Below the pieces are notes generated by a model. The model was not told where the DNA came from, ran no database searches, and saw nothing but the letters and a program-made list of their open reading frames with translations. 44,174 nt of DNA. Origin: Halobacteroidaceae bacterium. GTDB lineage: Bacteria; Bacillota; Halanaerobiia; B1SED10-174. The position numbers and the translations under genes were made by a program. The stretch covers positions 1 to 44,174 of the forward strand of contig PWFS01000100.1 of NCBI GenBank assembly GCA_003554145.1. The letters run 5' to 3'. This document shows positions 22,648-24,795 of this stretch, one piece after another (position 1 is the stretch's first letter; every line of letters begins with the position of its first letter).

Positions 22648-23283
22648 TTAACCGGGCGAAATAATCCTCTTAAAAGCCCGGCCCAGCAGGCGAGAAAAAA
22701 CACTTCCTTCAGGAGGAACTGATTTCAGATCATCAGCTACCCGCAGAAAAAGGGGGATTTCAATATGATAAGCCAGCCATTCCTCGGTTCTGATAGTCGC
22801 AGCAGACCGGGCCTGGAAATAAATATGATCAAAGCGCCCCTCTAATTTCAACCGGTTGATCTCCGGAAAAGTTTCCTCCTCCATTATTTCTTCCTGGATT
22901 TTTTCCACTAACCGGATGGCTTTTTTTTCCCGCTTTTTGAAACCACAGGAAATCTCTACGTCATTATCCGTATTGTAGTGGCCGTGCCCGTGAATCTCTA
23001 TCAAAATTTCCGGACTGCTGCGAATTATGGCCTGTGAATAGTCTGTTTTCAAACTCTTATTGGGATCAATAAAATAATTGCCAGCACAGATAAAGGAGGC
23101 CTGTAATTCTCGGGCCAGGTTCCGGCCCAGAAAACCCGCATTCTCATCCCCTGGTCTCCGGGAGGGGGTGGGCATAAAGGGCTGCCCCCCGGGGGTATGG
23201 TGAGGCACTCCCACGGTTATCGAGGACCCTTCTTTTAATTCAACAAGTAAAAATCCCAGGTCTGAGCTGTGCATAATATCCAC
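22648..23283 (-). CDS. N-formylglutamate amidohydrolase-like / zinc hydrolase-like protein
   Basis: VPHHTPGG, RPGDENAGFLGRNLA, DPNKSLKTDYSQAI, ILIEIHGHGHYNTDNDVEISCG. Confidence 0.5.
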   Translation of the reverse strand: MDIMHSSDLGFLLVELKEGSSITVGVPHHTPGGQPFMPTPSRRPGDENAGFLGRNLARELQASFICAGNYFIDPNKSLKTDYSQAIIRSSPEILIEIHGHGHYNTDNDVEISCGFKKREKKAIRLVEKIQEEIMEEETFPEINRLKLEGRFDHIYFQARSAATIRTEEWLAYHIEIPLFLRVADDLKSVPPEGSVFSRLLGRAFKRIISPG

Positions 23284-23305: not shown

Positions 23306-24304
23306 TTAAATCCCAATGGGACAATCATAAAAAATATGGGCTTCTGCTTCCAGGTACTGGCGGTTCATGGCCTCGGTCTCCAGGTAGGACATGAAGATCC
23401 GGGAGACAGGAACCGTCATTTTCAGAAGGTAAAAATTTCGATAGTTCTCCTCCTGATCCAGGCCGCAGAAGGAGCGGGCCACCTCCAGGCTAAAGGTACA
23501 GGAAAGAAAAGATCGTTCTATTTCCTTAAAATCCCCCTCGGTAGCCATACCCCGGTAGAGCGCCACTTCCTGCCGGTCCTGCAGTTGAAAAAAAGCCTGA
23601 ATAAAACCTGTCCTGTCCCGGAGATATTCTGCCCTGATTTCCCGGCAACCTTCTCCGGAAAAAATATCCGGCAGGCGAGGCACCTGGCCCCGAAAACGAG
23701 TCAGTCCCATTTCAGCAGCAACAATGGCCATTCCCTTTATCCATTCCCCCGAGGAGGGGTTAAGAACCATTATATCTGCAGTTTTTTCCTCGAGCCCTTC
23801 CAGGCCCTTTTCTGCCATATAGGCCTGCAGATCCCGGGCAAGAGCCGGTGAGCCTCTGCGGCTCTCCAGGTCCAACCTCTGCCCCCCGGCAATAAATTCG
23901 GAATTGCTCTCCAGCCAGCTCCGGGCCTTTTGGGCCCTGTTTTTTATTTCTTTAATTTCTTTTTCCCTGCGCTGGGGGTCGATATCGCGAATCAGGGGCC
24001 GGGAATAATCACTGATCCTTTTTTTCAGTTTTTCCAGGTCAGTGGAATCTAACCGTTGGGAATCAGGTTCAAATTGCATTCTTTGCACCCATTCGGCGGG
24101 GAGGTCCCAGTAGCGACCGGCATCCTCAAAACCGGTAATGTGCCAGCGGAACATGGCCCATTCTGGCCAGACCTGCCCCACATAACCCGGGGTTCGGCGG
24201 CCGTCCAGAAGACGCCCAGTGTTGCCGGCCATCAGAAATTCCAGCTTGCCGGGCACAAAGCAGGAATCGGGTTTGCGTTCCGAATCCGATTGATGAATAC
24301 CCAT
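23306..24304 (-). CDS. Putative ADP-ribosyltransferase-fold (R-S-E type) protein with an uncharacterised N-terminal domain
   Basis: C-terminal VALYRGM (R251), SFLSCTFSLEVARSF (S-T-S-like 268-272), YLEAEAHIF (ExE 319-321). Confidence 0.5.
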   Translation of the reverse strand: MGIHQSDSERKPDSCFVPGKLEFLMAGNTGRLLDGRRTPGYVGQVWPEWAMFRWHITGFEDAGRYWDLPAEWVQRMQFEPDSQRLDSTDLEKLKKRISDYSRPLIRDIDPQRREKEIKEIKNRAQKARSWLESNSEFIAGGQRLDLESRRGSPALARDLQAYMAEKGLEGLEEKTADIMVLNPSSGEWIKGMAIVAAEMGLTRFRGQVPRLPDIFSGEGCREIRAEYLRDRTGFIQAFFQLQDRQEVALYRGMATEGDFKEIERSFLSCTFSLEVARSFCGLDQEENYRNFYLLKMTVPVSRIFMSYLETEAMNRQYLEAEAHIFYDCPIGI

Positions 24305-24795
24305 CAGACCGCCCTCCCCTTTATCAGTTCCAGCACCTCCTGGATCCGGGAAATTTTCCAGTAATCCCCCTGCGGTTCCTTTTCTGCAGTCAACCAGGCG
24401 GCCTTCATTCCCAGGCGGCGAGCTGGAATAATATCTTTTTCCAGATTATCCCCAACCATCAGGCACTGCCCCGGGGGATAGCCTACTTTGCGGCAGATAT
24501 TGCGGAAAAAATCCAGGTGGGGTTTCTGACTTTTCAACTCCTGGCCGGTGAGAAAGAAATTAAAATAATGGGCGATTTGGCCCCGCTGGAGGGCCCGGCG
24601 CAGCATTTCTCCATTGGAGGAACGAGCACTGGAGGCCACGGCCAGGGTAAAATCCGGTTTCAGCTCCTTCAGGGTGGGGGCCACCCCGGGCAGAACCTCT
24701 ATTTCCGGCCACTCCAGCATGGGACCTTCATAATGGGGAAAATCCCGCATCAGGGTATCCCCCCAATCGAAAATAACTGCTTCGATTTTAATCAT
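24304..24795 (-). CDS. HAD superfamily hydrolase
   Basis: VIFDWGDTLMRDFP; AVASSARSSNGEM; CLMVGDNLEKDIIPARRLGMKAAWL. Confidence 0.9.
   Translation of the reverse strand: MIKIEAVIFDWGDTLMRDFPHYEGPMLEWPEIEVLPGVAPTLKELKPDFTLAVASSARSSNGEMLRRALQRGQIAHYFNFFLTGQELKSQKPHLDFFRNICRKVGYPPGQCLMVGDNLEKDIIPARRLGMKAAWLTAEKEPQGDYWKISRIQEVLELIKGRAV

What the first reader, a model, noticed from the sequence alone, without database searches (positions are those of the whole stretch)
23306..24304. Cryptic ADP-ribosyltransferase-fold protein coupled to a HAD hydrolase and an amidohydrolase-like gene
The last ~90 residues carry the ordered R-S-E hallmarks of ADP-ribosyltransferases: LYRG (R251), FLSCTFSLEVARSF (S-T-S-like), LEAEAHIF (ExE at 319-321). 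The N-terminal ~240 residues (KLEFLMAGNTGRLLDGRRTPGYVGQVWPEWAMFRWHITGFEDAGRYWDLP...) match no family I recognise. No signal peptide is evident, so it is probably cytoplasmic. It overlaps the HAD gene by 1 nt and precedes the N-formylglutamate-amidohydrolase-like gene by 22 nt. It could be an intracellular modifier, a toxin or a defence effector.
Basis: partly seen in the sequence, partly recalled or inferred. Interest (0 to 1): 0.65.

Follow-up and report, generated by a model that had tools for sequence, protein, structure and literature searches.

The report
New rare bacterial ADP-ribosyltransferase family
The gene encodes a probably cytoplasmic enzyme of a rare, previously unnamed family that looks built to transfer ADP-ribose from NAD+ onto a target inside the cell; it moves around as a single gene, and the two neighbours proposed as partners accompany it only in one genus.

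Summary
Confirmed in part. The ORF is real (minus strand, 24304..23306, 332 aa) and under purifying selection. Homologues cover its full length in Halanaerobiales, other Bacillota and a few outliers. No Pfam, NCBIfam, PHROG or PADLOC family matches.

The ART reading holds. R251 is invariant, S268-x-T270 is largely kept, and E319 and E321 are invariant. AlphaFold2 with 21 sequences (pLDDT 91) puts them in ART order: Arg on beta1, SxT on the next long strand, ExE on the last. Foldseek's best PDB hit is an ADP-ribosyltransferase (4y1w), but weakly (E 0.089). The best viral structural hit, phage SP-15 SP15_258, carries the same R/SxS/ExE, and an independent profile alignment pairs them (E 2.8e-5, best of 200 phage ORFs).

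Corrections: the N-terminus is an SH3/KOW-like barrel plus helices, and the ART region starts near residue 150, not 240. The published cholera-toxin-group pattern is not met (R-to-S spacing too short), and the chain ends 5-11 residues after ExE in most homologues.

The HAD/amidohydrolase coupling fails: that trio exists only in the window's genus. Elsewhere the gene stands alone, is patchy, sometimes broken and sometimes beside IS elements. Most likely an intracellular mono-ADP-ribosyltransferase used in conflict or stress; target unknown.

The parts
23306..24304 (-). ART-fold gene, 332 aa (P0001), ATG start 24304, stop 23306-23308
   Evidence: ORF; full-length homologues; dN/dS 0.07-0.11
24065..24259 (-). 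N-terminal SH3/KOW/Tudor-like barrel, about aa 16-80, with invariant E60, D61, W66, E71 and the near-invariant RLLDGRRTPG block
   Evidence: AF2 strands 29-32, 39-46, 51-56, 65-69; Foldseek hits to KIN17 and NusG SH3-like domains, E 0.3-1, probability up to 0.93; conservation
23903..24046 (-). long helical linker, aa 87-134, the most variable region
   Evidence: AF2; column entropy
23570..23848 (-). helical lobe preceding the ART beta core, aa 153-245, containing the most conserved block LNPxSGEWIKG (aa 181-191)
   Evidence: AF2 helices 153-165, 169-181, 186-198, 221-241; entropy minimum at aa 181-200; alpha-lobe described for CT-group ARTs in PMC6628389
23309..23569 (-). ART beta core, aa 246-332
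   Evidence: strands 246-255, 266-270, 290-299, 303-306, 321-325
23552..23554 (-). R251 (YRGM), region 1 Arg
   Evidence: 20/20 conserved, on first core strand
23495..23503 (-). S268-C269-T270, STS-like region 2
   Evidence: S 17/20, T/S 20/20, on strand 266-270
23342..23350 (-). E319-A320-E321, ExE region 3
   Evidence: both Glu 19/19, at start of strand 321-325
24304..24795 (-). HAD-family hydrolase upstream (1-nt overlap); neighbour in this genus only
   Evidence: Pfam HAD_2 E 1.5e-17; orthologue on a different contig from the ART in the sister genus
22648..23283 (-). downstream gene called amidohydrolase-like; no family match; genus-restricted
   Evidence: no Pfam or NCBIfam hit; 4 of 61 relatives, all window genus

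Best explanation
It is a probably cytosolic, single-gene mono-ADP-ribosyltransferase of a new family. Shown (by prediction and conservation): an SH3/KOW-like barrel, a helical linker, then an ART-fold catalytic region with R251, S268-x-T270 and E319-x-E321. Inferred: R251 and the Ser/Thr strand hold NAD+, E321 drives nicotinamide release, and E319 in the ExE turn-turn loop favours an arginine-type acceptor. The barrel, as conserved as the catalytic part, recognises or docks on the target or holds the enzyme inactive until a signal. The gene spreads as an accessory unit without a fixed partner, and is probably used in conflict (phage defence or stress shut-down) or regulation. The target is unknown.
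For: R/SxT/ExE conserved in about 20 diverged sequences down to 38% identity. AF2 pLDDT 91.4, pTM 0.90, with motif residues on strands in ART order. Best PDB fold hit of 350,542 chains is the ART 4y1w. Viral library: 4 hits below E 1e-3. The best, SP-15 SP15_258, has LFRGM / SFSYS / DEAEVVLL, and hhalign pairs those columns at E 2.8e-5, score 44 against 27 for the next of 200 phage ORFs. Pfam-verified phage ART GMA2_14 (PF03496 E 1.9e-13) is also in the fold list (rank 21). No fixed partner, patchy distribution, broken copies and IS neighbours.
Against: The PDB match to a known ART is weak (E 0.089, TM 0.23). Profile matches to verified ARTs are weak too (GMA2_14 E 0.06; T4 ModA 0.1; ModB 0.046). 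The strict CT-group pattern is not met, and only 5-11 residues follow ExE in most homologues. No NAD+ pocket was modelled. No antitoxin, phage, plasmid or consistent defence-island link was found.
Confidence: 0.6

Rival explanations
1. An ART-fold NADase or NAD+ phosphorylase: it consumes NAD+ without a macromolecular acceptor, as an abortive-infection-type effector.
For: ART-superfamily NADases are described among prokaryotic defence effectors (PMC9503650); NUDIX genes lie directly upstream in two lineages (L018; L024/L029) and nearby in a third (L021); patchy accessory distribution.
Against: The intact ExE plus turn-turn segment with invariant E309, T310, Y317 is usual for transferases with an acceptor; no paired sensor gene; NUDIX is absent at the other loci.
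Confidence: 0.2
2. A secreted or injected toxin related to the C2/C3/Vis-type enzymes.
For: Motif kind and best PDB hit.
Against: The N-terminus is a conserved folded barrel, not a leader; no secretion or binding-component gene seen next to any homologue; hosts are mostly free-living sediment or gut bacteria; strict CT-group pattern failed. Signal prediction was not run.
Confidence: 0.07
3. An ART-fold protein that binds but does not catalyse, for example a nucleotide sensor.
For: Short R-to-S spacing and truncated C-terminus; the helical block LNPxSGEWIKG is more conserved than the STS strand.
Against: All catalytic residues are retained in intact copies.
Confidence: 0.1
4. A metabolic three-gene unit with the HAD and amidohydrolase-like proteins, as the finding proposes.
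For: Order and overlap kept in four congeneric genomes.
Against: ART occurs without either neighbour in every other lineage; HAD and ART lie on different contigs in the sister genus; the third gene is genus-only.
Confidence: 0.03

Closest known systems
CT-group mono-ADP-ribosyltransferases (PF03496 type; Vis 4y1w as best PDB hit)
   Same: Helical lobe, then strand with YR, strand with S-x-T, turn-turn loop and ExE strand
   Different: No Pfam match; R-to-[YF] gap 14 residues instead of 27-60; SCT not ST[SQT]; chain ends right after ExE; extra SH3/KOW-like domain
Bacillus phage SP-15 SP15_258 (unannotated)
   Same: LFRGM, SFS, EAE in the same order; profile E 2.8e-5; best viral fold hit
   Different: 469 aa, no matching N-terminal barrel in the profile alignment; chain continues past ExE
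T4 ModA/ModB phage ARTs
   Same: Intracellular targets; similar YRG and SxT segments
   Different: No significant profile match; different architecture
2CompART (PF22546)
   Same: Only Pfam family to appear with an ART name, aa 287-319
   Different: E 0.1, 13.2 bits against cut-off 27, in one member only

Membership tests
ART superfamily (fold) | Ordered Arg, Ser/Thr and Glu residues on core strands, conserved in the family | tested here: met
ART superfamily (fold) | Structural match to solved ARTs | tested here: inconclusive
   Top PDB hit is an ART but E 0.089; significant hits only to viral predictions, the best carrying ART motifs
ART superfamily (fold) | Split sheet of two three-stranded units, motif residues clustered | not testable with these tools
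   Coordinates are not released to the session; only DSSP was seen
ART superfamily (fold) | NAD+-dependent activity | not testable with these tools
   needs biochemistry
CT-group ADPRT | [YFL]-R-X(27,60)-[YF]-X-S-T-[SQT]-X(32,78)-[QE]-X-E (PMC3000352) | tested here: not met
   0 of 21 members match
CT-group ADPRT | (Q/E)xE catalytic motif | tested here: met
   E319 and E321 19/19
PF03496 / PF22546 | Score above Pfam gathering cut-off | tested here: not met
Known anti-phage defence system (PADLOC) | Match to a PADLOC model | tested here: not met
Toxin-antitoxin pair (DarTG-like) | Adjacent macrodomain or NADAR antitoxin | tested here: not met
   No conserved partner at homologous loci; the genome's macrodomain genes lie on other contigs

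The most novel reading that the evidence does not exclude
The KOW/SH3-like barrel docks the enzyme on the transcription or translation machinery, so that a host-encoded ART modifies RNA polymerase, ribosome or a bound factor to shut down growth during phage attack, a bacterial counterpart of T4 ModA/ModB with a built-in targeting domain.
Probability: 0.1. Interest if true: 0.7.

Novelty: new variant of a known kind. Interest (0 to 1): 0.45.

Why it matters
It adds an unannotated, compact ART family with a new domain combination, short motif spacing and a shortened C-terminus. A host-encoded ART without a fixed partner raises a testable question of what keeps it safe and what it modifies. The motif pattern used to mine for ARTs would miss it.

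Tried and rejected
Three-gene functional unit: rejected outside the genus. Phage or plasmid carriage: no hits in phages, plasmids or viral contigs. Known families: none. First AF2 model with 8 sequences left residues 250-296 unresolved; its PDB search found only SH3-like hits for the N-terminus. PF22546 members for a profile comparison: none found in 300 genomes or the controls. Empty-site test in a sister species: shared sequence ended at a contig edge, uninformative. Single-sequence PDB search: no hits. Motif pattern alone as proof: rejected, about 8% of shuffles match a loose version.

Full report
Observation. The ORF lies on the minus strand, 24304 to 23306, 332 aa, ATG start. It overlaps the upstream HAD gene by one base and ends 22 bases before the next gene. 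The quoted motifs are at the quoted residues.

Homologues. Whole-genome and contig searches gave about 20 distinct homologues, nearly all matching full length at 38-68% identity. They come from Halanaerobiales, Clostridiaceae bacterium M8S5, Parablautia, gut Clostridia, and MAGs labelled Haloplasma, Tepidibacillus, Thermotogales and Eremiobacterota; MAG labels may be binning errors. The family is rare: 2 of 399 phylum genomes including the window's own and 1 of 299 in a Parablautia-centred family sample. It was absent from phages, plasmids and viral contigs. The gene tree mixes lineages, with weak deep branches.

Selection and motifs. dN/dS among close relatives is 0.07-0.11; several pairs are saturated in dS. 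R251, E319 and E321 are invariant where present, residue 270 is T or S throughout, and S268 is kept in 17 of 20. A loose motif pattern alone appears in about 8% of shuffles, so conservation and fold carry the argument.

Fold. With 8 sequences the catalytic end was unresolved. With 21, pLDDT is 91.4 and pTM 0.90. Residues 29-69 form a small barrel resembling SH3/KOW/Tudor domains (Foldseek E 0.3-1, probability up to 0.93). Helices 153-241 precede strands 246-255 (R251), 266-270 (S268, T270), a helix, strands 290-299 and 303-306, then 321-325 beginning with the ExE Glu. This matches the published ART layout of a helical lobe, (Y/F)R, the STS strand and the (Q/E)xE strand (PMC6628389; PMC3000352).

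Matches to ARTs. The best PDB match is the Vis ART, 4y1w, but weak (E 0.089). The viral library gave four matches below 1e-3. I traced the best one to SP15_258 of Bacillus phage SP-15 by its length of 469 aa: it carries LFRGM, SFSYS and DEAEVVLL. An hhalign comparison, which uses no structure, pairs these with our R, SxT and ExE at E 2.8e-5. Among 200 phage ORFs it scores 44 and the runner-up 27. SP15_258 itself has no family match, so it corroborates rather than proves. GMA2_14, a Pfam-verified ART, is lower in the fold list (rank 21) and aligns weakly over the YR and SxT segments (E 0.06); T4 ModA and ModB align weakly at the SxT segment.

Neighbourhood. HAD, ART and the downstream gene stay together only in the window's genus. 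Other homologues have unrelated neighbours. NUDIX genes are directly upstream in L018 and in L024/L029, and two genes away in L021, suggestive at most. L016 lies near DUF5131 and genes I read as TcmP-like and restriction-like. L019 lies about 260 bases after a multi-copy IS1182-like transposase. Broken copies exist in G052, G453 and as fragments in G043 and G226. This looks like an accessory, mobile, non-essential gene.

Erasers. The ADP-ribosylarginine-hydrolase family PF03747 is absent in 8 of 9 relatives with the ART but present in 37 of 52 without it (Fisher 0.001; 0.03 after collapsing the window's family). Related genomes are not independent, so this is only a lead. Macrodomain genes are present in 8 of 9 but also 32 of 52 (not significant).

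Mechanism. Shown by prediction and conservation: domain layout and an intact ART residue set. Inferred: NAD+ binding by R251 and the SxT strand, catalysis by E321, an arginine-type acceptor because of ExE, targeting or autoinhibition by the barrel, and a role in conflict or stress. Target and trigger are unknown.

Novelty. An unannotated ART family with a new domain combination, short R-to-S spacing and an early end: a new variant of a known kind. It fails the strict CT-group pattern and all Pfam cut-offs, so I do not file it in those families.

Noticed in passing
relatives G000-G060: The ADP-ribosylarginine-hydrolase family (PF03747) is missing in 8 of 9 genomes with this ART but present in 37 of 52 without it; Fisher 0.001, 0.03 after collapsing the window's family. 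Phylogeny not controlled.
   Followed up: partly
window 22648-23283 (-): The downstream gene, conserved within the genus with invariant His/Glu/Asn motifs, matches no Pfam, NCBIfam or PDB sequence; a genus-restricted putative hydrolase.
   Followed up: partly
L073:41139-42548 (Bacillus phage SP-15 SP15_258): An unannotated phage protein with clear ART motifs (LFRGM, SFSYS, DEAEVVLL) and no match in Pfam, PHROGs or NCBIfam at reportable significance.
   Followed up: partly
L018:5773-6300, L024:897-1337, L029:6039-6479, L021:9826-10452: NUDIX hydrolase genes beside or near ART homologues in three lineages (Pfam-tested in L018, L024, L021).
   Followed up: partly
L040:1384-1839 and L016 (G226 contig C59): A truncated second copy of the N-terminal domain about 12 kb from the intact gene, next to what looks like an IS3-type transposase.
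   Followed up: no
L021 and L027 (same MAG21): One genome carries two diverged full-length copies of the family on different contigs.
   Followed up: no
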